Shown in pieces: positions 8,034 to 23,146 of a stretch of DNA of 64,000 nt. Below the pieces are notes generated by a model. It was not told where the DNA came from. It made no database searches and saw only the letters and a list, made by a program, of their open reading frames with translations. The stretch is from Methanothrix harundinacea 6Ac (lineage in GTDB: Archaea; Halobacteriota; Methanosarcinia; Methanotrichales; Methanotrichaceae), in the NCBI RefSeq assembly GCF_000235565.1, contig NC_017527.1, positions 1,488,001 through 1,552,000 of the forward strand, given 5' to 3'. Positions within the stretch are counted from its first letter, which is position 1. The number at the start of each line of letters is the position of its first letter. Both the position numbers and the translations under genes were made by a program.

Positions 8034-9953
8034 CTAAAAGCTCCCCGCTTCGATGACCGACCACGTCCTCCTCCAGCCATCGCTGGCCTTCAAGAGCGCG
8101 AGGTTGCCGCCGCCGTCGGTGCTGTAAAACTCGCCCTGGCCTGCGGCCGGATCGTAGAATAGGAGGTCGGTGAATCCGTCACCGTTGAACTCTCCGGGGA
8201 CGATCGTCGACCAGGTCCTTCGCCACCCGCTGTGAGATTTCAGGAGCCTGATGTTCCCGGTCCCGTCGGTGGCGTAGAACTCCCCCTGGCCGGCGGCGGG
8301 GTCGTAGAAGAGGAGGTCGGTGAATCCGTCGCCGTTGAACTCTCCGGGGACGATCGATGACCACGTCCTCCTCCATCCGCTGTGAGATTTCAGGAGTCTG
8401 ATGTTCCCGCTACCGTCGGTGGCGTAGAACTCGCCCTGGCCTGCGGAGGGGTCGTAGAATAGGAGGTCGGTGAATCCGTCTCCGTTGAACTCTCCGGGGA
8501 CGATCGATGACCATGTCCTCCGCCACCCGCTGTGAGATTGGAGGTGCCTGATGTTCCCGGTCCCGTCGGTGGCGTAGAACTCGCCCTGGCCGGCGGCGGG
8601 GTCGTAGAATAGGAGGTCGGTGAATCCGTCTCCGTTGAAATCTCCGGGGACGATCGCCGACCATGTCCTCCTCCATCCGTCGCTCGCCTTCAAAAGCCTG
8701 ATGTTCCCGCTTCCATCGGTGGCGTAGAACTCGCCCTGGCCTGCGGAGGGGTCGTAGAATAGGAGGTCGGTGAATCCGTCGCCGTTGAAATCTCCGGGGA
8801 CGATGATAGACCATGTCCTCCGCCAGCCAGAGCTGCTCTTCAACAGCTGGATGTTACCGCTACCGTCCGTCGAATAGAACTCACCCTGGCCGGCGGCCGG
8901 ATCGTAGAATAGAAGGTCTGCATAGCCGCCGCCCGTAGGCCCAGGGAAGCCGTCGCTTTCATCATGCTCCGGCCCCGGGGAGCCGTCAGCGCCGCCGCTG
9001 AACACTCCGGGGACGATGATCGACCATGTCCTCCTCCATCCGCTGTGAGACTGCAGGAGCCTGATGTTACCGCTCCCATCGGTGGCGTAAAACTCGCCCT
9101 GGCCGGCGGCGGGATCGTAGAATAGGAGGTCGGTGTATCCGTCGCTGTTGAAGTCTCCGGGCATGATCATCGACCATGTCCTCCTCCATCCGCTATGAGA
9201 TTTCAGGAGCCTGATGTTCCCGGTCCCGTCGGTGGCGTAGAACTCCCCCTGGCCTGCGGCCGGGTCGTAGAATAGGAGATCGGTGTACTCGTCACCGTTG
9301 AAGTCTCCGGGGACGATCGATGACCATGTCCTCCTCCATCCGTCGCTCGCCTTCAAAAGCCTGATGTTCCCGCTCCCATCGGTGGCGTAGAACTCCCCCT
9401 GGCCTGCGGCCGGATCGTAGAATAGGAGGTCGGTGAATCCGTCACCATTGAAGTCTCCGGGGACGATGATCGACCATGTCCTTCGCCACCCGCTGTGAGA
9501 TTGGAGGAGCCTGATGTTCCCGGTCCCGTCGGTGGCGTAGAACTCGCCCTGGCCTGCGGCGGAGTCGTAGAATAGGAGGTCGGTGAATCCGTCACCGTTG
9601 AAGTCTCCGGGGACGATCATCGACCATGTCCTCCTCCATCCGCTGTGAGATTGGAGGAGCCTGATGTCGCCCCTTCCGTCGGTGCTGTAGAACTCGCCCT
9701 CGCCTGCGGCCGGATCGTAGAATAGGAGGTCGGTGAATCCGTCACCATTGAAGTCTCCGGGAACGATCATCGACCACGTCGCCCTCCAATTTCGATAATT
9801 TTTTAAGAGATCTGCGTTTCCGGCTCCGTCCGTCGAATAGAACTCACCCTGGCCAGTGGTGGGATCGTAGAACAGAAGATCCGACTCACCGAAAGCTCCG
9901 TCCAGGCAGAACGCCGAGATCATCAAGACCATCGCCAGTCCCTTCCAGCTCAT
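8034..9953 (-). CDS. Secreted 12-copy VCBS/FG-GAP-like repeat protein
   Basis: A 639-residue exported protein with a signal peptide (LAMVLMISAFCLDGAFG) followed only by 12 tandem units of about 50 residues. Each unit reads roughly DLLFYDPAAGQGEFYATDG, then G-W-R-R-T-W-S and PGDFNGDGFT; the D-x-N-x-D-G loop is a typical calcium-binding FG-GAP/VCBS element, so a beta-propeller or stacked beta fold is likely. Unit 6 carries an extra Gly/Pro-rich loop of about 21 residues (PGPEHDESDGFPGPTGGG). The last unit is cut short. No anchor is visible. Likely a surface or sheath adhesin-like protein; the ligand is unknown. A GAGGTGAT ribosome site precedes ATG 9953, and a TATA-like ATTTATATC lies near 10013-10024. 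Confidence 0.85.
   Translation of the reverse strand: MSWKGLAMVLMISAFCLDGAFGESDLLFYDPTTGQGEFYSTDGAGNADLLKNYRNWRATWSMIVPGDFNGDGFTDLLFYDPAAGEGEFYSTDGRGDIRLLQSHSGWRRTWSMIVPGDFNGDGFTDLLFYDSAAGQGEFYATDGTGNIRLLQSHSGWRRTWSIIVPGDFNGDGFTDLLFYDPAAGQGEFYATDGSGNIRLLKASDGWRRTWSSIVPGDFNGDEYTDLLFYDPAAGQGEFYATDGTGNIRLLKSHSGWRRTWSMIMPGDFNSDGYTDLLFYDPAAGQGEFYATDGSGNIRLLQSHSGWRRTWSIIVPGVFSGGADGSPGPEHDESDGFPGPTGGGYADLLFYDPAAGQGEFYSTDGSGNIQLLKSSSGWRRTWSIIVPGDFNGDGFTDLLFYDPSAGQGEFYATDGSGNIRLLKASDGWRRTWSAIVPGDFNGDGFTDLLFYDPAAGQGEFYATDGTGNIRHLQSHSGWRRTWSSIVPGEFNGDGFTDLLFYDPSAGQGEFYATDGSGNIRLLKSHSGWRRTWSSIVPGEFNGDGFTDLLFYDPAAGQGEFYATDGTGNIRLLKSHSGWRRTWSTIVPGEFNGDGFTDLLFYDPAAGQGEFYSTDGGGNLALLKASDGWRRTWSVIEAGSF
8037..9885 (-). 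repeat. Tandem 150-bp repeats inside the VCBS-like gene
   Basis: Twelve head-to-tail copies of a roughly 150-base unit, each coding about 50 residues. Neighbouring copies differ only by scattered substitutions and often share long identical blocks such as the region coding GGTGAATCCGTC (plus strand). The similarity suggests recent expansion or gene conversion. One copy near 8930-9010 carries an insertion of about 63 bases that keeps the frame. Confidence 0.9.
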
Positions 9954-14491: not shown

Positions 14492-16849
14492 TCACTGGCT
14501 CATAGAGCAGATCTCGTCGCAGGTTGTCTCTTCGGAGTAGCCGACGTACTCGAAGTCCCAGTTCGGAGGCCGCCACGTCGAGCCGATCCGCTCTTTATCC
14601 ACCTGTTCGATGTCGATAACGGCGGTTGCATATACTGGGTGCTCTGGAAGCCCGTCGAGAGACTTGGGGTCTACTCTGACAACGTTCACAAACCTTCCTG
14701 CGTGGAGCGCCTCTACACTGTAAGTTATGGTCTCCGTATCGAACGGCTCGATATCCTCCAAGTTCCATGTGATGGTACCGTTATCCTCCGATGAAGCTGG
14801 GAATGTGGGGTCCAGAAGCTTCATGCCTTCTGGCAACTGGTCGGTCACCGTGGCAGCTCTGTCGCTATTGGCATCGTTGTTGACGTATATTTTGTACCAG
14901 ACGATGCTACCATTCTGGGGATCTAACTGGGCCGTCTTAACAACCGACACGCCGTTGGATCCGCAGATCCATTCGCTGCCGTTGTAACCGCCGCAGGCTT
15001 CCACTCTGTTCACCAGCTCTGCTGGATGATGGGTCAAGGACTCCACGTGAAGAGCTTTCGTCACCTCCAGGCTGAATATTATGGTGGCGACATCCCCTAT
15101 ACCAAGATGCGTCAGCGTCCAGTTGGCATACTTATCATTCAGCTCTGTGGGCCTTACCGAGGCGGGATGGATGAAAACAGATCCCGGCGGGAAGATGTCC
15201 CTCACGTAGACTGGTGCAAGCGCCCTGTCCCCGTCGTTCTCGATACTGATGGTGTAGGTGGCGATCGTTTCGTTTACCCCGATCGTCTCCTCGTCGATCC
15301 ATTCTAAGGTCGTGGTGACGTTCAAATGGGGCAGGTTGTATTTTGGAGCCGACACGTATAGGTTTATTCTCCTCTCGATCAAGTGGTTGCCCTCGTAGAG
15401 CTCGTCAAAGTCTAGGCTGTCCCTCAGAATCGCCCTGTACCTGGCTCGGCCCGAGAAGTTGGCGATGGTTTCGGTATTGTTTAGTCCTGCCGCCACCGCG
15501 GATTTATAGAGATAATCGGCACTGGTGTACTCCTCGCCGATGTAGCTTCCGCCTGGGCTTCTGGAGTACATGCCCTCCTTCCACCTCATCGAAGACTCAA
15601 TCGAGACGTCATCAGTGAGGCTCTGGCTCATCGGCGCGTGTACAAGGCTTATGTCTTTTGAGATGTAGTTTGTGTAGGTTCTTATCATCTCCTCAGAGTC
15701 GTAGGTTCCAGTGCCAGATTCGTAGCTGCTCTGATTGGAACCGATGCCCTTGTTGACGGCGACGCGGCCCGTTCCTGAGACGTACTTGTCGGAGGTGACG
15801 CTAGATCCGTACTCGTCGACGATCTGCAGTATCCTAAAGCTCCCGAAGTAGTCCTCGCGGGACTCGAAGAGCGGCAGCGCCTGAGGCGTTGGAGGTGGTG
15901 AGGGAGCAGGTCCGTTGGAAGAGGTTGAAGTATCGAAAGGCATCTTCAAAAATCCGATGTGACCGGTCCCGTTGAACACCGATTCTATATTCATCACCGA
16001 CTCGTTCTCGTCGAGAAACATCCTAGACTTGCGGTCTATCGATGTCGCGTACCTGTACGATTCGCTCATTGAGGCCCCGGTCGCCCAGTTTTCGGCGCTG
16101 GCAATCTGGGTCCATTTCGAAGAGTAGTTCACCGTCCTGTTGTTGTAGAGGTGGATAGAAGTCGATTTGTATCCTGAAGACCCGTCCTTTTCCATCGATA
16201 TCGACGTGTTCTCCGTCCTGAGCTTTAGCTTCTCATCGCTTTCGTAAGTGCCGCTGCCGTGCTCCATGATATCGAGCTTTGTATTGCTGATGGCAACTGA
16301 AACTGAGGCGTTAACGGGAGCCGTCTGATCAGAGTCGATCGTTGCCACGTTTTTCAGGTTATGGCCTACAGGGCTCGTGGATAGGCTATCCCTGACGCTC
16401 ACAAACCCCTCACCGACGACCCGCCCCTCTTCGGAGAATTCGAGATCCTGAATATCGTGAACCATAACCCCTATCCCGATAACTCCCCCTTCGCCTGGGG
16501 AGAGATCTCCTATCTCCCACACATTCACCGTTCCCGGCTTCGGATCGATCGATGCCTGGACGAACTCGGTCCCGGGGGGATAACTCTCGGTTATATCGAC
16601 TCCGGTAAGATCAGTATCCCCGTCATTTTCGTAAAATATGGCGTAATACAGGGGCTCTCCTGGAGATACGCTGGTGGCGGATGCGATCTTCATAATAGAG
16701 ACGCTCGCCTCGCCCTGGGCTGAGGTGGCCGAGATGAAGAAAATTGATGCGAGCAATAGCATGAACAAAATTAGTTTCAGTTCTCGTTTGATGTTGCTCC
16801 TGGCGTGGTAGAAGATCGAGATCGAGAAGGTATATTTCAATTCAATCAT
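14492..16849 (-). CDS. DUF11-type exported surface protein
   Basis: About 785 residues. A long N-terminal hydrophobic signal (LILFMLLLASIFFISATSAQG) is followed by at least three DUF11/conserved-repeat beta domains with the family signature of a paired G-D strand and Y-P-P-G-T or F-P-P-G-S motif (DLTGVDITESYPPGTEFVQAS near residue 85, APVYVRDIFPPGSVFIHPAS near 560, ATVTDQLPEGMKLLDP near 680), separated by a Ser/Thr/Tyr-rich central region with many N-glycosylation sequons. It ends in a Cys pair (CDEICSMSQ). ATG 16849 is chosen over 16876 because a TATA box lies about 25 bases upstream of it. The family is common in archaeal sheath and S-layer proteins. GC content is clearly lower than in most of the window. 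Confidence 0.8.
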   Translation of the reverse strand: MIELKYTFSISIFYHARSNIKRELKLILFMLLLASIFFISATSAQGEASVSIMKIASATSVSPGEPLYYAIFYENDGDTDLTGVDITESYPPGTEFVQASIDPKPGTVNVWEIGDLSPGEGGVIGIGVMVHDIQDLEFSEEGRVVGEGFVSVRDSLSTSPVGHNLKNVATIDSDQTAPVNASVSVAISNTKLDIMEHGSGTYESDEKLKLRTENTSISMEKDGSSGYKSTSIHLYNNRTVNYSSKWTQIASAENWATGASMSESYRYATSIDRKSRMFLDENESVMNIESVFNGTGHIGFLKMPFDTSTSSNGPAPSPPPTPQALPLFESREDYFGSFRILQIVDEYGSSVTSDKYVSGTGRVAVNKGIGSNQSSYESGTGTYDSEEMIRTYTNYISKDISLVHAPMSQSLTDDVSIESSMRWKEGMYSRSPGGSYIGEEYTSADYLYKSAVAAGLNNTETIANFSGRARYRAILRDSLDFDELYEGNHLIERRINLYVSAPKYNLPHLNVTTTLEWIDEETIGVNETIATYTISIENDGDRALAPVYVRDIFPPGSVFIHPASVRPTELNDKYANWTLTHLGIGDVATIIFSLEVTKALHVESLTHHPAELVNRVEACGGYNGSEWICGSNGVSVVKTAQLDPQNGSIVWYKIYVNNDANSDRAATVTDQLPEGMKLLDPTFPASSEDNGTITWNLEDIEPFDTETITYSVEALHAGRFVNVVRVDPKSLDGLPEHPVYATAVIDIEQVDKERIGSTWRPPNWDFEYVGYSEETTCDEICSMSQ

Positions 16850-16872
16850 TCTGATACCCGAACTTTCTTGGA

Positions 16873-16883
16873 CCATTATAAAT
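16873..16883 (-). promoter_or_regulatory. TATA box of the DUF11 gene
   Basis: On the minus strand the sequence GATTTATAATGG lies about 25-30 bases before ATG 16849, which would give a nearly leaderless transcript. The ATG at 16876 sits inside this box and is therefore unlikely to be the true start. Confidence 0.5.
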
Positions 16884-16972: not shown

Positions 16973-17548
16973 CTATCTCCAATCCCAATGCCCACAGCAG
17001 CCATTGCAGCCATCGATAAAGAGCGCGGCGGGGCCGAAGGTCTCCGGCAGGGCCTGGTCAGCTTGCTCGTTGAACGTGGCGTAGCTGAGTTCCGGCTCTT
17101 CGAGGATGCTCACGTTGTATTGAAGAGTTTGGCTGCCAGCGTCGTAGACAGGATCGAATAGCTCGACCACTGCTACATCCTCATCCTCATCTGCATCCAG
17201 GATCTCGATGGCGGCGTTTGGCGGATTCTCAGCCGAGAAGGCCAAGCTGTCGAGGAACTGCTGCATCTCCGCCTGGATGACGATCCGTTCCGGCCGGTCC
17301 GAGAAGGCGATCGTCTGGGGAGCGACGCCCATGAGGGTCAGGGTGTAGAGGTTATCCACGCCCTCTACAGGGATCAGGATTCCGGACTGGGCGGTCTGGA
17401 CGAACATGAAGGTTACGTTCTTCTCACGTTGGAGTTCTTCGGTCTCTTCGGCCAGCACTCCATAGCTCACCGTGAAAAGGGCCATCGCCAGAAGGGCGAT
17501 GGCCGCAAAAGTCTTTGTAATCACTCTATCCACCTTCCGTGCTCTCAT
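16973..17548 (-). CDS. Exported paralog A, short Cys-rich tail
   Basis: A 191-residue exported protein, the last of three paralogs in a row. Signal peptide (AAIALLAMALFTVSYGVLA), then a conserved body of about 150 residues containing NVTFMFVQTAQSG, LMGVAPQTIAFSDRPERI, NPPNAAIEIL, LQYNVSIL and the boundary motif LPETFGPAALFID. After that motif the tail is only 12 residues (GCNGCCGHWDWR). The function is unknown. The ATG overlaps the stop of paralog B in an ATGA arrangement, so A and B are translationally coupled. The secreted body plus variable tail suggests a scaffold that displays a metal-binding or cross-linked end. Confidence 0.75.
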   Translation of the reverse strand: MRARKVDRVITKTFAAIALLAMALFTVSYGVLAEETEELQREKNVTFMFVQTAQSGILIPVEGVDNLYTLTLMGVAPQTIAFSDRPERIVIQAEMQQFLDSLAFSAENPPNAAIEILDADEDEDVAVVELFDPVYDAGSQTLQYNVSILEEPELSYATFNEQADQALPETFGPAALFIDGCNGCCGHWDWR

Positions 17549-18237
17549 ACGGGTGTTCGATATGGGTATTCACTATTATCCGGGGAAATATAGCATTTCT
17601 TGCAACATCCACCATCATAATTACAGAGAAGCTGCCACCAACTCCAGGAAGTCGAGTAACAATTCGAATCGCAACCTTCCATTGCGATATTCCAAAGACA
17701 AGGGCAATCGTCGATGAAGAGAGCAGTGGGGCCGAAGGTCTCCGGCAGGGCCTTGTCGTGGCGTTCGTTGAAGACTGCATAGCTGTGGTCCGGCTCTTCA
17801 AGGATGCTGATGTTGTACTGCAGGGTTTGACTGGCAGAGTCGTAGATTGGATCGAAGAGCGCGACCACTGCTACATCCTCGTCCTCATCCGCCTCCAGGA
17901 TCTCAATGGCGGCATTCGGCGGGTTCTCAACCGAGAAGCCCAGGCCGTCGAGGAACTGCTGCATCGGTGCCTGGACTACGATCCTCTCCGGCCGGTCCGA
18001 GAAGGCGATCGTCTGAGGAGCGACGCCCATGAGGGTCAGGGTGTAGAGGTTCTCCTGGCCTTCGATAGGTACGAGGGTCCCGGAATGGGCGGTCTGGACG
18101 AACATGAAGGTGACGTTCTTCTCAGCTTCAATCTCTTCAACATCCTCAACTTCTGGCTCTTCGGCCAGCACCCCACAGCTCGCTGCGAGGATCGCCATCA
18201 CCAGAAGGGAGATGGCCGCAATGGCTTTTTTGTACAT
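17545..18237 (-). CDS. Exported paralog B, long Cys/Trp-rich tail
   Basis: A 230-residue exported paralog of the neighbouring genes. Signal peptide (AAISLLVMAILAASCGVLA), an acidic linker (EEPEVEDVEEIEAE), the same body (FVQTAHSG, VAPQTIAFSDRPERI, LPETFGPTALFID) and then a tail of about 55 residues with eight Cys and several Trp/Tyr (for example MEGCDSNCYSTSWSWW and GGCCKKCYIS) that does not align with the tails of A or C. ATG 18237 is preferred over the longer in-frame start at 18438 because it opens the signal peptide, follows AGGGGGCG and lies just after a TATA-like GATATATATG near 18258-18266. Translationally coupled to A. Confidence 0.75.
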   Translation of the reverse strand: MYKKAIAAISLLVMAILAASCGVLAEEPEVEDVEEIEAEKNVTFMFVQTAHSGTLVPIEGQENLYTLTLMGVAPQTIAFSDRPERIVVQAPMQQFLDGLGFSVENPPNAAIEILEADEDEDVAVVALFDPIYDSASQTLQYNISILEEPDHSYAVFNERHDKALPETFGPTALFIDDCPCLWNIAMEGCDSNCYSTSWSWWQLLCNYDGGCCKKCYISPDNSEYPYRTPV

Positions 18238-18513
18238 TTTAATTCGCCCCCTATGACATATATATCCTTGGATAGTGTCGAGGCCAGTATCAGGGCAGTC
18301 TGACATTTTGTTCACAGTCTGAGTTGGGCGGCAACAGAAGCTACCGCGAAGAATCGCGGTATCAACACTCAGACTAATATCATGAGGCGTATCGCTACCT
18401 TCTGACTCCGGAACGGGATTCATGGCAAATATGTGCATGATTGAGTCAGCTTATCGCTATCCTGAAGTTACCCACACGGAATAGCGAAGAGCCTCAAACC
18501 TGGAGAGGGGCAC

Positions 18514-18548
18514 TAAAAAATAATAACCTGCACCACTTTGGTGGTGCA
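18514..18548 (-). terminator. Hairpin terminator after paralog C
   Basis: On the minus strand an 8-bp stem (TGCACCAC pairing with GTGGTGCA, at 18529-18548) with a four-base loop is followed by GGTTATTATTTTTTAG, a U-rich run. It lies about 60 bases after the stop of paralog C and would separate its transcript from paralog B. Confidence 0.65.
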
Positions 18549-18607
18549 AGTCATTATCTTTTTACTATCCATGGCCCCATAGTGAGCCTTCGTTGGCTTA
18601 TTGCTAC

Positions 18608-19327
18608 TTAATTACCACAGTCGTACTCGCACTGAGAACCGTAGGAATCGGTACAGCCATGCCCGTGGTCATACGAACACCATTCACAACGCGCATGCGC
18701 CCAGTTATAGCACCTGCCTACTTTGATCTTCCCACAAAATGTCCCATCCAAAGTACAGCATCTCCACCAGCCGTCAGAACAATCGTCTATGAACAGGGTG
18801 GCGGGACCAAAGGTCTCCGGCAGGGCCTGGTCAGCACGCTCGTTGAAGACGGCATAGCTGTGGTCCGGCATCTCCAGTATGCTCACGTTGTACTGGAGGG
18901 TCTGGCTCTCATTGTCATAGACTGGATCGAATAGCTCGACGACGGCTACATCCTCCTCTTCATCGGCGTCCAGGATCTCTAGGGCGGCGTTCGGCGGATT
19001 CTCAGCCTCGAAACACATGCCGTCGAGGAACTGCTGCATCTCCGCCTGGGCCACGATCCGCTCCGGACGGTCCGAGAAGGCGATGGTCTGAGGAGCGACT
19101 CCCATGAGGGTCAGGGTGAAGAGGTTCTCCTGGCCTTCGACAGGGACTAGGGTTCCGGACTGGGCGGTCTGGACGAACATGAAGGTGACGTTCTTCTCGG
19201 ATTGCAGCTCTTCGAGATCTTCAACTTCTACCTCGGTTCCTTCAGCCTCTTCCGCCATCACTCCACCGCTAACGGTGAGGAGCGCCATCGCCAGAACGGC
19301 CATGACAGCACGCGCTTTCTTGCTCAT
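18608..19327 (-). CDS. Exported paralog C, longest Cys-rich tail
   Basis: A 239-residue exported protein, first of the three paralogs. Signal peptide (AVMAVLAMALLTVSGGVMA), acidic linker (EAEGTEVEVEDLEEL), the shared body (NVTFMFVQTAQSG, VAPQTIAFSDRPERI, LPETFGPATLFID), then a tail of about 60 residues with ten Cys and many Trp, Tyr, His and Gly (DGWWRCCTLDGTFCG, CEWCSYDHGHGC, CEYDCGN). The body also holds one extra Cys (GMCFEAENPP). Start ATG follows AGGTAGATAAAT; a TATA-like TTTTTATTTAGG near 19408-19419 would give a leader of about 60 bases. Function unknown; the tail could bind metal or be held by disulfides. Confidence 0.77.
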   Translation of the reverse strand: MSKKARAVMAVLAMALLTVSGGVMAEEAEGTEVEVEDLEELQSEKNVTFMFVQTAQSGTLVPVEGQENLFTLTLMGVAPQTIAFSDRPERIVAQAEMQQFLDGMCFEAENPPNAALEILDADEEEDVAVVELFDPVYDNESQTLQYNVSILEMPDHSYAVFNERADQALPETFGPATLFIDDCSDGWWRCCTLDGTFCGKIKVGRCYNWAHARCEWCSYDHGHGCTDSYGSQCEYDCGN

Positions 19328-20426: not shown

Positions 20427-21350
20427 CTAGACGACAAAGCCGGTTTCAGAGACGGGCAATATCCGAACGAGTATATAGTCCTTCATCCTCGACGGCATCA
20501 CCTTGGCTATCTCACCCAGGGTCACCCCCTCCTCGAACCTGACCCCCGCCACCGCCTCGTGATACTCCTCATAAGGAAGCTTGATCCTCAGGCCGTTGAG
20601 GTTGAGGGCGATAGGGAGCGGCGAATGGGAGATGAGGACGTCGGGGACCTGCTCCCTCACCGCGTCCATCACCCGCGGTGGCGTGGTGGTGAGGGGGTCC
20701 TTGGAGATCGAGGTGCGGACGCTGTCGAGGGCTCTCCCCACCGCGGCGACTATGTTGTCGAGGCTTCCGATCTCCGTCGCCTTCCGGGAACGGTGGGCAA
20801 TCCTGCCGACGTTTGGGACGTACTCGAAGGCGTAGGGAAGGTCTTCCTTCCTCATATCGGGTCCGCCGGTAACGATCACCGGGACGGTGAGGGTCCGGTA
20901 GAGGTGCTCCTTCTTCAGGATGCAGTCGGCGAAGTTCCCGAAGGTGAAGACGACGGCATCGTGCTCGTTGATGAGGGCGGTCTCGTACTCGTCCATCTGG
21001 GCGATCTTCTTCGCCACCCCCCGGCTCATCCCGATCATGTTGCTCTTCGCCCCGTGCCTCCTGAGGTACTCGGCGACGTCGCAGGCGGGGTGGGGGAGGT
21101 GATGGATGGCGAGGGTCGGGGTCACCACGGCGATCTCCGTACCCGCCAGTGGCGCCCGTTCCAGCTTCCCCTTCAGCTCCTTGGTCAATGCCTCCAGGAC
21201 CGGCATGTCCTCGTGGGGGACGAGCATCAGAAGGATCACCTCGCTCTGGGTGACGTTCTTCTGGAGGAGGTACCCTCCCAGGTCCTCGACGAGCTCCGTC
21301 ACCAGGTCGTGCTTGTAGACGCCGCCGGTGAACATCACGGGATCAAGCAT
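20427..21350 (-). CDS. mmp7: Methanogenesis marker protein 7
   Basis: A 307-residue protein matching methanogenesis marker 7 (opening MFTGGVYKHDLV, HEDMPVLEALTKEL, GGPDMRKEDLPYAFEYVPNVGRI, and a C-terminal domain ending in LVRILPVSETGFVV). In Methanococcus, Mmp7 co-purifies with McrC, Mmp17, Mmp3 and component A2 as the ATP-driven complex that reduces F430 nickel in MCR, and the complex holds nitrogenase-like complex iron-sulfur clusters. I count only two Cys here (PACD and ADCI), both candidate ligands. ATG overlaps the end of mmp17 by eight bases, indicating coupling. Confidence 0.9.
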   Translation of the reverse strand: MLDPVMFTGGVYKHDLVTELVEDLGGYLLQKNVTQSEVILLMLVPHEDMPVLEALTKELKGKLERAPLAGTEIAVVTPTLAIHHLPHPACDVAEYLRRHGAKSNMIGMSRGVAKKIAQMDEYETALINEHDAVVFTFGNFADCILKKEHLYRTLTVPVIVTGGPDMRKEDLPYAFEYVPNVGRIAHRSRKATEIGSLDNIVAAVGRALDSVRTSISKDPLTTTPPRVMDAVREQVPDVLISHSPLPIALNLNGLRIKLPYEEYHEAVAGVRFEEGVTLGEIAKVMPSRMKDYILVRILPVSETGFVV

Positions 21351-21918
21351 CTCGCATGCCTCCGATCTTCTCCTTCGCCTCGGCGACCAGCTCGGGGGTT
21401 ATCGTCTCCTCCGCCGCCAGGAAGAAGAAGCTCTCTTTTCCCATCTCGTTCCTCCGGTTCCTGAAGCCCTCGGGGGATATCCTGACGAGGGCGTCCATCA
21501 GGTCCCTGCGGAACTCCGTCTCCAGGTCCGCCACCACCAGCTCCTCGGGGGATTGGTCCGATAGGACCACCAGAACGTTCCTGTCGGGCTGCTCCACCTT
21601 CTCCCGGCCGTAGGCCTCCCAGAGGGCGCGGATGAGGCCGGCCATATGCTCCTCGTCCTCCACGGTGATCTGGTATCCGCCCTCGGCGGCCACCAGATCC
21701 CCGACGTCCCTCACCCTCAGGGGGGGGAGCTTCCCCCGGATCATCCCGAAGACGGCGAAGTAGGGGACGAGGATGTCGACGTAGACGTAGAGCCTCCCGA
21801 TCGACCTGATCAGCCCCAGGTCCTGGAGGATGTCCATGATGATCTCTCGATACTTCTTCGCCCCATACTCCTCCCCGGGCATCTGGACCTCGAAGACCTC
21901 GAGGGGGTCCATCTCCAT
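21343..21918 (-). CDS. mmp17: Methanogenesis marker protein 17
   Basis: A 191-residue cytoplasmic protein matching methanogenesis marker 17 (PLEVFEVQMPGEEYG, GRLYVYVDILVPYFAVFG, a ferredoxin-like fold end EETITPELVAEAKEKIG). No Cys is present, so it is likely a structural partner rather than a cluster ligand. In the MCR activation complex described from Methanococcus it is one of the subunits with McrC, Mmp7, Mmp3 and A2. It starts one base after the mmp15 stop and overlaps mmp7. Confidence 0.88.
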   Translation of the reverse strand: MEMDPLEVFEVQMPGEEYGAKKYREIIMDILQDLGLIRSIGRLYVYVDILVPYFAVFGMIRGKLPPLRVRDVGDLVAAEGGYQITVEDEEHMAGLIRALWEAYGREKVEQPDRNVLVVLSDQSPEELVVADLETEFRRDLMDALVRISPEGFRNRRNEMGKESFFFLAAEETITPELVAEAKEKIGGMRDA

Positions 21919-21919
21919 C

Positions 21920-23146
21920 TCAGTCCTCCACGAGCCCCGAGACGAGGAGGCTTGCTCCGACGCAACCGATGTACTGGGCGTACTCTGGGACGATCACCTT
22001 CAGCCCCAGGAGCTGCTCCATCGCCCTCGGGAGACCCTCGATGAGGGCGGTCCCGCCCACCATGATCACCGGCTCCTTCACCTCCACCTCCTGGAGCTGC
22101 TGCTCGAAGACCTGCTCGGCGACGCTGTGGCAGGCGGCCATCGCCACGTCCTCGGGCCTGGACCCCGCGGAGAGGCTGTTCACCAGGCTCTGGGTTCCGA
22201 ATACTATGCAGTAGCTGTTCATGGGGACTTTTCGATGGTCTCCCTTGAGGGCGAGCTTCCCGAGCTCCGTAATCTCGACCCCGAGCCTTCTGGCCGTCAG
22301 CTCCAGAAACCTCCCTGAGGCCCCGGCGCAGATCCCGCCCATGGTGAAGGTTCCCGGGACCCCATCCTGGACGGATATCGCCTTGTTGTCCATCCCTCCG
22401 ATATCTATCACCGTGGCGGCGCCCTTCTGGGAATCTGCCAGGAAGACCGCCCCCTTGGAGTTGACGGTGATCTCCTCTTGGATCAGCTTTGCGCCGAACT
22501 CTTTGCCCACGAGTTGGCGGCCGTATCCGGTCGTTCCCAGCCCCTCGATCTCCCCCCTCTCGACCCCCGCCGATTCGAGGGCGGCATTGTAGGCCGCCTC
22601 GGCGCTCTTTAGAACCTCGGTGGTGGGGACCCATCCGGTCCCTATTACCTCGTTATCCCTCATCACCACCGACTTGGTCGTCGTCGAGCCGGAGTCGATC
22701 CCGGCGGTGAGGCCGGTCTGCCTCTCCCGACTTAATAGACCCTTGAACTTGGCGGTGGTGACGAGGGCCTCCATCCTCGTGAGGAGGGTCTCGGCCGTCG
22801 TCCTCTCGGTAAAGGAGTAGCTGAGGACTGGGATCCTGGAGTTCTCGTGGATGTACTTCCGCAGCTCGCTTCTGACGATCGCCCCCTCGGCGCACCGAAA
22901 GCAGGTGGCTACGAAGACGGCGTCGGCGAGGTCGGGGTTCTCCACGATCCTGGTGGCCCTCGCCATGGCGAGGTTCAGATCGCCGCTCGCCACCTCGATC
23001 CCGAACCTCTCCTCGACGTTCCTGACGTCGTCTAGGGATACCTCAGGGAAGATGAGCTCGGCCCCCACCATCTCGGCGGCCTTCTCCAGTTCCCCCTGGA
23101 CGCCGCTGTACTCGGGGCCGCAGGAGAGCTGGGCTATTCTTATCAA
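21920..23146 (-). CDS. mmp15: Methanogenesis marker 15, ASKHA-type ATPase
   Basis: A 408-residue protein. The first 140 residues are a marker-15-specific domain with a CFRCAEG Cys pair. The rest is an ASKHA ATPase of the BcrAD/BadFG/HgdC reductive-activator type: phosphate-1 motif [23 protein letters not shown], phosphate-2 [14 protein letters not shown], and the cluster motif [13 protein letters not shown] with a further Cys in NSYCIVFG. Related activators couple ATP hydrolysis to low-potential electron transfer through a bridging 4Fe-4S cluster. Its co-operon position suggests it helps build or reduce the MCR activation system, though it is not one of the subunits reported in the purified complex. 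TTG start overlaps the mmp5 TGA. Confidence 0.92.

What the first reader, a model, noticed from the sequence alone, without database searches (positions are those of the whole stretch)
16973..19327. Three exported paralogs with constant bodies and hypervariable Cys-rich tails
Seen: three adjacent genes encode signal peptide, acidic linker (absent or short in A) and a body kept nearly identical (VAPQTIAFSDRPERI, LPETFGPxxLFID). Right after that boundary motif the tails diverge completely: 12 residues with 3 Cys, about 55 with 8 Cys, and about 60 with 10 Cys, all rich in Trp, Tyr, Gly. B and A are translationally coupled. Inference: a delivery or scaffold domain displays variable cross-linked or metal-binding ends; a modified-peptide, toxin-like, recognition or electron-transfer role could fit. 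I recognise no described family.
Basis: partly seen in the sequence, partly recalled or inferred. Interest (0 to 1): 0.78.

Follow-up and report, generated by a model that had tools for sequence, protein, structure and literature searches.

The report
Exported archaeal proteins with exchangeable Cys-rich tails
Three neighbouring genes of the methane-producing archaeon Methanothrix harundinacea encode exported proteins that share one conserved, unnamed domain but end in different cysteine-rich tails; relatives show that the tails fall into a few conserved types that have been swapped between domains during evolution, so this looks like a small modular surface-protein family of unknown task.

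Summary
Genes A, B and C (minus strand, 16973-19327) encode signal peptide, acidic linker, a body of about 134 residues (82-85% identical), and, right after LFID, tails of 12, 54 and 58 residues with 3, 8 and 10 Cys. The genome matches Methanothrix harundinacea 6Ac. The body is in no Pfam or NCBIfam model. Relatives occur patchily in methanogens (12 of 50 genomes of the family, 9 of 394 sampled in the phylum) and, distantly, on rhizobial plasmids.

'Hypervariable' needs correcting. C's tail aligns full length with tails from other genera and a second archaeal family (class 1). B's tail resembles an 8-Cys class in two other genera (class 2). A's is a stub. Body and tail histories conflict: AU tests on the body tree reject each tail class as one clade, and in one four-gene array two bodies are 97% identical in DNA beside tails at 61%. 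So: a fixed body/tail boundary, exchanged or homogenised modules, fast-evolving tails.

Function is inferred only: most likely a surface-displayed carrier presenting a compact Cys-stabilised binding or cross-linking tip. No linked modifying enzymes or immunity genes were seen. Structure predictions failed for lack of sequences.

The parts
18608..19327 (-). Gene C: signal peptide, long acidic linker, body, class-1 tail (239 aa)
   Evidence: homologs
18785..19186 (-). Body of C (134 codons, TFMFVQ...LFID)
   Evidence: profile match
18611..18784 (-). Tail of C: 58 codons, 10 Cys, class 1
   Evidence: full-length alignment with tails of other genera; profile hit E 2.9e-21
18514..18563 (-). Hairpin with T-run after C, terminator-like
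   Evidence: MFE -42 kcal/mol for 18500-18615, z -4.96
17545..18237 (-). Gene B: signal peptide, acidic linker, body, class-2 tail (230 aa from ATG MYKK)
   Evidence: the upstream in-frame ATG at 18438 is not supported by homologs
17710..18111 (-). Body of B
   Evidence: profile match
17548..17709 (-). Tail of B: 54 codons, 8 Cys, probably class 2; GC3 39% against 76% in the body
   Evidence: hhalign 91.7% to class 2, 0 of 150 shuffles as high; GC3
16973..17524 (-). Gene A from the likely GTG start (ATG ORF reaches 17548): signal peptide, short linker, body, 12-aa tail
17012..17413 (-). Body of A
   Evidence: profile match
16976..17011 (-). Tail of A: stub GCNGCCGHWDWR, 3 Cys, possibly a shortened class-1 tail (compare TGCCWDW of G012)
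   Evidence: alignment; weak

Best explanation
A family of exported, surface-displayed carrier proteins. A secretion signal (in relatives a lipobox or an N-terminal membrane anchor) and a flexible acidic or Thr/Asn-rich linker lead to a conserved, probably beta-rich body that ends in a strand [LV][FVI]ID. Everything after that strand is an exchangeable tail. In Methanothrix relatives the tail is usually a compact Cys-rich mini-domain of one of a few classes. Recombination between copies, by gene conversion of bodies or transfer of tails, has broken the link between body lineage and tail class, and the tail changes fastest. Inferred, not shown: the body holds the protein in the envelope and the tail is a Cys-stabilised (disulfide or metal) tip that binds or cross-links something outside the cell. 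Shown: the anatomy, the fixed boundary, conserved tail frameworks, body/tail incongruence, and faster tail change in one species pair. Confidence in the modular, evolutionary part is about 0.85, in a surface binding or cross-linking role about 0.4; the figure given is for the whole.
For: Conserved body in 14+ archaeal sequences with the boundary always at FID and in rhizobial relatives, whose Gly/Tyr/Pro-rich tails also begin there. Class-1 tails align full length across genera and a second family (pairwise z up to 16); class 2 likewise. Body tree against tail class: AU p 4e-4 and 2e-9 against each class being one clade. G031 copies b and c: body dS 0.083, tail dS about 1.9, with the break at the boundary. 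A-B-C body dS 0.50-0.55 is lower than B or C against G012 (0.80, 0.94) although flanking genes differ by 0.24-0.49. G012 against G008: 5 residue changes in the 64-aa tail, 0 in 171 others (p 0.0013). Tails found on no other protein in 50 genomes.
Against: No structure (pLDDT 37 and 43), no expression or localisation data. The genome has no recognisable VKOR or DsbB, and its one thioredoxin-like hit has no evident signal peptide, so disulfide formation is not assured. Some members have no Cys tail, so the tail is not essential to the body's role. B's membership of class 2 is likely, not certain.
Confidence: 0.5

Rival explanations
1. Envelope or sheath cross-linker: the tail Cys form intermolecular disulfides that tie the protein into the Methanothrix sheath or S-layer. 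This is one specific form of the best explanation.
For: Disulfides are reported to hold archaeal sheath hoops together (PMC11576556, PMC10593813). The proteins are exported and one downstream neighbour is an exported DUF11 protein.
Against: Patchy distribution (12 of 50 genomes of the family) and presence in genomes outside it; Cys-less members; no recognised VKOR or DsbB.
Confidence: 0.2
2. Extracellular metal-binding tips: Cys clusters such as CxxCGGCC bind Zn, Fe, Ni or Cu for uptake, storage or detoxification.
For: Class-2 ends C-x2-CGGCC and CxxC pairs in class 1; a reducing habitat favours free thiols; no recognised oxidase.
Against: No metal transporter or regulator recurs beside the genes; Cys-poor versions exist.
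Confidence: 0.2
3. Relaxed ends: after the body's last strand the C-terminus is under little constraint, and the tails are drifting extensions read from 3' flanking DNA, without a function of their own.
For: Cys-less and stub tails exist (A, G031d, G030, G014). Tail GC3 is near that of local intergenic DNA. Tails change fast.
Against: Cys frameworks of classes 1 and 2 persist across genera, and for class 1 across two archaeal families, while loops vary; that needs selection.
Confidence: 0.1
4. Polymorphic-toxin-like effectors: a constant delivery part with exchangeable toxic tips.
For: Tip exchange at a fixed boundary and one orphan tip (G030) resemble such systems.
Against: No immunity gene beside the tips, no standalone tip cassettes; tips are only 33-68 residues and resemble no known toxin domain.
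Confidence: 0.07
5. Precursor of a ribosomally made, enzyme-modified peptide, with the tail as core peptide.
For: Short Cys-rich, variable ends behind a constant part.
Against: Sec-type signal, lipobox or membrane anchor and a 134-aa body instead of a leader; no recurring modifying enzyme beside 18 loci (a QueE-like radical SAM gene near G015 alone).
Confidence: 0.03

Closest known systems
Unnamed hypothetical proteins of Rhizobiales plasmids (e.g. WP_225906213.1 Ensifer canadensis, WP_094088796.1 Rhizobium leguminosarum)
   Same: Same body motifs in order (F[SA]DRP.R.AG, DPPNA, [LV]FID), export signal, variable tail beginning after FID
   Different: About 27-36% identity; tails Gly/Tyr/Pro-rich with few Cys; often beside DUF1254 genes
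Polymorphic toxin systems (PMC3482391)
   Same: Constant part with exchangeable C-terminal tips; one orphan tip seen
   Different: No immunity genes, no standalone tip cassettes, very small Cys-rich tips
Archaeal sheath proteins (MspA of Methanothrix, SH of Methanospirillum; PMC6242892, PMC10593813, PMC11576556)
   Same: Exported; Cys and disulfides matter there; present in Methanothrix
   Different: Here small, patchily distributed, Cys-rich in the tail only; no similarity test to MspA was run

Membership tests
Unnamed body family shared with Rhizobiales | Homologous body over its full length | tested here: met
   tblastn of the G014 body to Ensifer: 98% of query covered, 31% identity, E 2e-5; motifs in order
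Unnamed body family shared with Rhizobiales | Variable tail begins right after [LV]FID | tested here: met
   archaeal and rhizobial members
Any Pfam or NCBIfam family | Score above the curated cut-off | tested here: not met
Polymorphic toxin systems | Immunity gene directly downstream of the tip | tested here: not met
   no conserved neighbour at 18 loci; copies follow one another directly
Polymorphic toxin systems | Exchange of C-terminal tips at a fixed boundary | tested here: met
   body/tail incongruence
Polymorphic toxin systems | Tip is toxic | not testable with these tools
   needs expression in a laboratory strain
RiPP precursors | Modifying enzymes encoded nearby | tested here: not met
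c-type cytochromes | CxxCH heme-attachment motif | tested here: not met
   absent from the tails of A, B and C; present only in some relatives (G012, G008, G015, G017, G379)
Archaeal sheath proteins | Sequence similarity to MspA/SH and location in the sheath | not tested
   no MspA comparison or proteomics was run

The most novel reading that the evidence does not exclude
An archaeal surface-protein system in which recombination at one fixed body/tail boundary keeps reassorting a small set of Cys-framed, fast-evolving tips, giving each strain a different repertoire of extracellular binding ends, for example for partner, surface or virus recognition.
Probability: 0.25. Interest if true: 0.7.

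Novelty: new variant of a known kind. Interest (0 to 1): 0.5.

Why it matters
If right, it adds an undescribed protein family, spanning methanogenic archaea and alphaproteobacteria, in which a conserved exported body carries switchable tails. In Methanothrix, a major source of biological methane that grows in tight contact with bacterial partners, such tails would be candidates for envelope cross-linking or recognition. The tail frameworks are small and directly testable.

Tried and rejected
Known-family assignment: Pfam and NCBIfam gave nothing above cut-off for bodies or tails, and PDB sequence searches gave nothing credible. Structure prediction with the five and four sequences allowed gave pLDDT 37 and 43, so no fold search was run. 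Phage and viral collections: no relative. Free-standing tail modules: none in 50 genomes except the G030 remnant and one marginal hit (G004, E 0.008) not pursued. Class 1 and class 2 as one homologous fold: hhalign without the boundary residues does not exceed shuffles, so not claimed. RiPP, heme and toxin readings were rejected or downgraded as described. Literature searches found nothing on these genes.

Full report
Origin. The window lies in a genome of 2,571,034 bases in two contigs. That equals the chromosome (2,559,043) plus plasmid (11,991) published for Methanothrix (Methanosaeta) harundinacea 6Ac (PMC3349665). G012 and G008 correspond to the named MAGs Methan_01 and M. harundinacea UBA1.

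Observation. The three ORFs, their bodies, the boundary and the tails are as described. The genome has no fourth copy. B and A lie head to tail; whether they overlap depends on A's start, and homologs plus a Shine-Dalgarno-like site favour a GTG 24 bases inside the ATG ORF. A strong hairpin with a T-run follows C.

Body family. No Pfam or NCBIfam model fits. A profile of nine bodies finds relatives in 12 of 50 genomes of the family, 9 of 394 sampled genomes of the phylum, 8 of 108 in a second family and 2 of 51 in a third. Distant relatives sit on rhizobial plasmids. N-termini differ: signal peptides in the Methanothrix family, lipobox-like cysteines (AGC) in G284, G385 and G463, a membrane-anchor-like segment in G326, G379 and G468 (read by eye). 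All fit display outside the membrane with the C-terminus distal.

Tails. In every homolog examined the conserved region ends at [LVI][FVIY]ID and sequence diverges after it, in bacteria too. Tails sort into: class 1 (C; G012, G008, G015, G017, two genomes of another family, perhaps G379), which align full length with shared Cys and the pattern CG-x-I-x(2)-G-x-CW...C-x(2)-C; class 2 (B; three G031 copies, G049, G036), with DC-P-C...C...SCW...C-x(2)-CGGCC in the best-kept members; a stub (A); two other 6-Cys tails (G046, G463); a pair with C-x-DGSC-like repeats (G284, G385); and Cys-less tails. B's place in class 2 rests on a profile match of 91.7% that no shuffle reached and pairwise z of 1.9-3.3, so it is likely but not certain. 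Neither class occurs away from this body in 50 genomes, apart from a G030 remnant whose tail nearly equals that of G031 copy c and whose body is gone.

Modular evolution. The body tree puts A, B, C, G012 and the other-family pair in one clade (97/97) and the remaining Methanothrix-family bodies (except G014) in another (96/94); classes 1 and 2 both occur in both clades. Forcing either class into one clade is rejected (AU p 4e-4 and 2e-9). In G031, copies b and c have bodies with dS 0.083 but tails with dS near 1.9, while a and b have bodies at dS 0.44 and tails at 72% identity; identity drops within about 20 bases of the FID codons. Gene conversion of bodies, tail transfer, or both would do this. 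In the window, A-B-C body dS values (0.50-0.55) are lower than B or C against G012 (0.80, 0.94), although flanking genes differ by only 0.24-0.49, which suggests homogenisation within the genome. B's tail has GC3 39% against 76% in its body (p 8e-7), and C's 53% against 75% (p 0.003); in M. concilii, with lower GC, body and tail do not differ significantly. This fits tail DNA from lower-GC relatives, but local intergenic DNA is equally AT-rich, so origin from 3' flanking DNA is not excluded.

Speed. Between G012 and G008 the tail has 7 nucleotide changes in 192 (5 of 64 residues), the rest 1 in 513 (no residue); Fisher p 6e-4 and 1.3e-3. dN/dS in the tail is about 1.2 on few sites: consistent with relaxed or positive selection, not proof.

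Function. Inferred only. The neighbourhoods share no gene beyond local synteny with G012 and among close relatives, so there are no linked modifying enzymes or immunity genes. The genome lacks recognisable VKOR and DsbB, and the one thioredoxin-like hit has no evident signal, although DsbB/DsbD were reported in sheathed Methanotrichales (PMC11576556). Whether the Cys are disulfide-bonded or metal-bound is open. A surface carrier with a Cys-stabilised binding or cross-linking tip explains export, a distal tail, conserved Cys, varying loops and patchy distribution best. Sheath cross-linking and metal binding are the main rivals. Heme is contradicted for the window's copies, since CxxCH occurs only in some relatives.

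Limits. Tail classes were named by eye; relatives are partly MAGs; bodies are short (135 columns) and deep nodes weakly supported; structure predictions failed.

Noticed in passing
window 8034-9953 (-) and L060:14687-15643: Exported 639-aa protein whose gene matches its G012 counterpart at many offsets of about 150 nt, i.e. an internal tandem repeat with differing copy number.
   Followed up: no
window 14492-16876 (-): Exported protein with three DUF11 stretches directly downstream of A on the same strand; also downstream of the single copy in G012.
   Followed up: partly
window 20427-23146 (-): Genes that look like methanogenesis marker proteins (recognised from memory) upstream of the cluster; synteny with G012 at 91.6% DNA identity.
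   Followed up: partly
L057 (G030:C15:34976-35059, -): Orphan class-2 tail, near-identical to that of G031 copy c, without a body and preceded by stops: a deletion remnant.
   Followed up: yes
L044, L046 (G027:C51:3242-3648): Body gene broken into two reading frames: apparent pseudogene in that genome.
   Followed up: no
L052, L053 (G481, G477): Distant body relatives with 'PYGVI[FL]DDPEY' in place of the SDRP motif and 4-Cys tails; two reading frames of this kind in L052.
   Followed up: no
L016 (G036:C109, contig start): Partial body of the window's clade with a class-1-like tail in a genome that also carries a body of the other clade with a class-2 tail.
   Followed up: partly
L023, L089, L022, L090: Rhizobial body homologs lie beside DUF1254, OmpA and 'cysteine rich repeat-containing' genes.
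   Followed up: no
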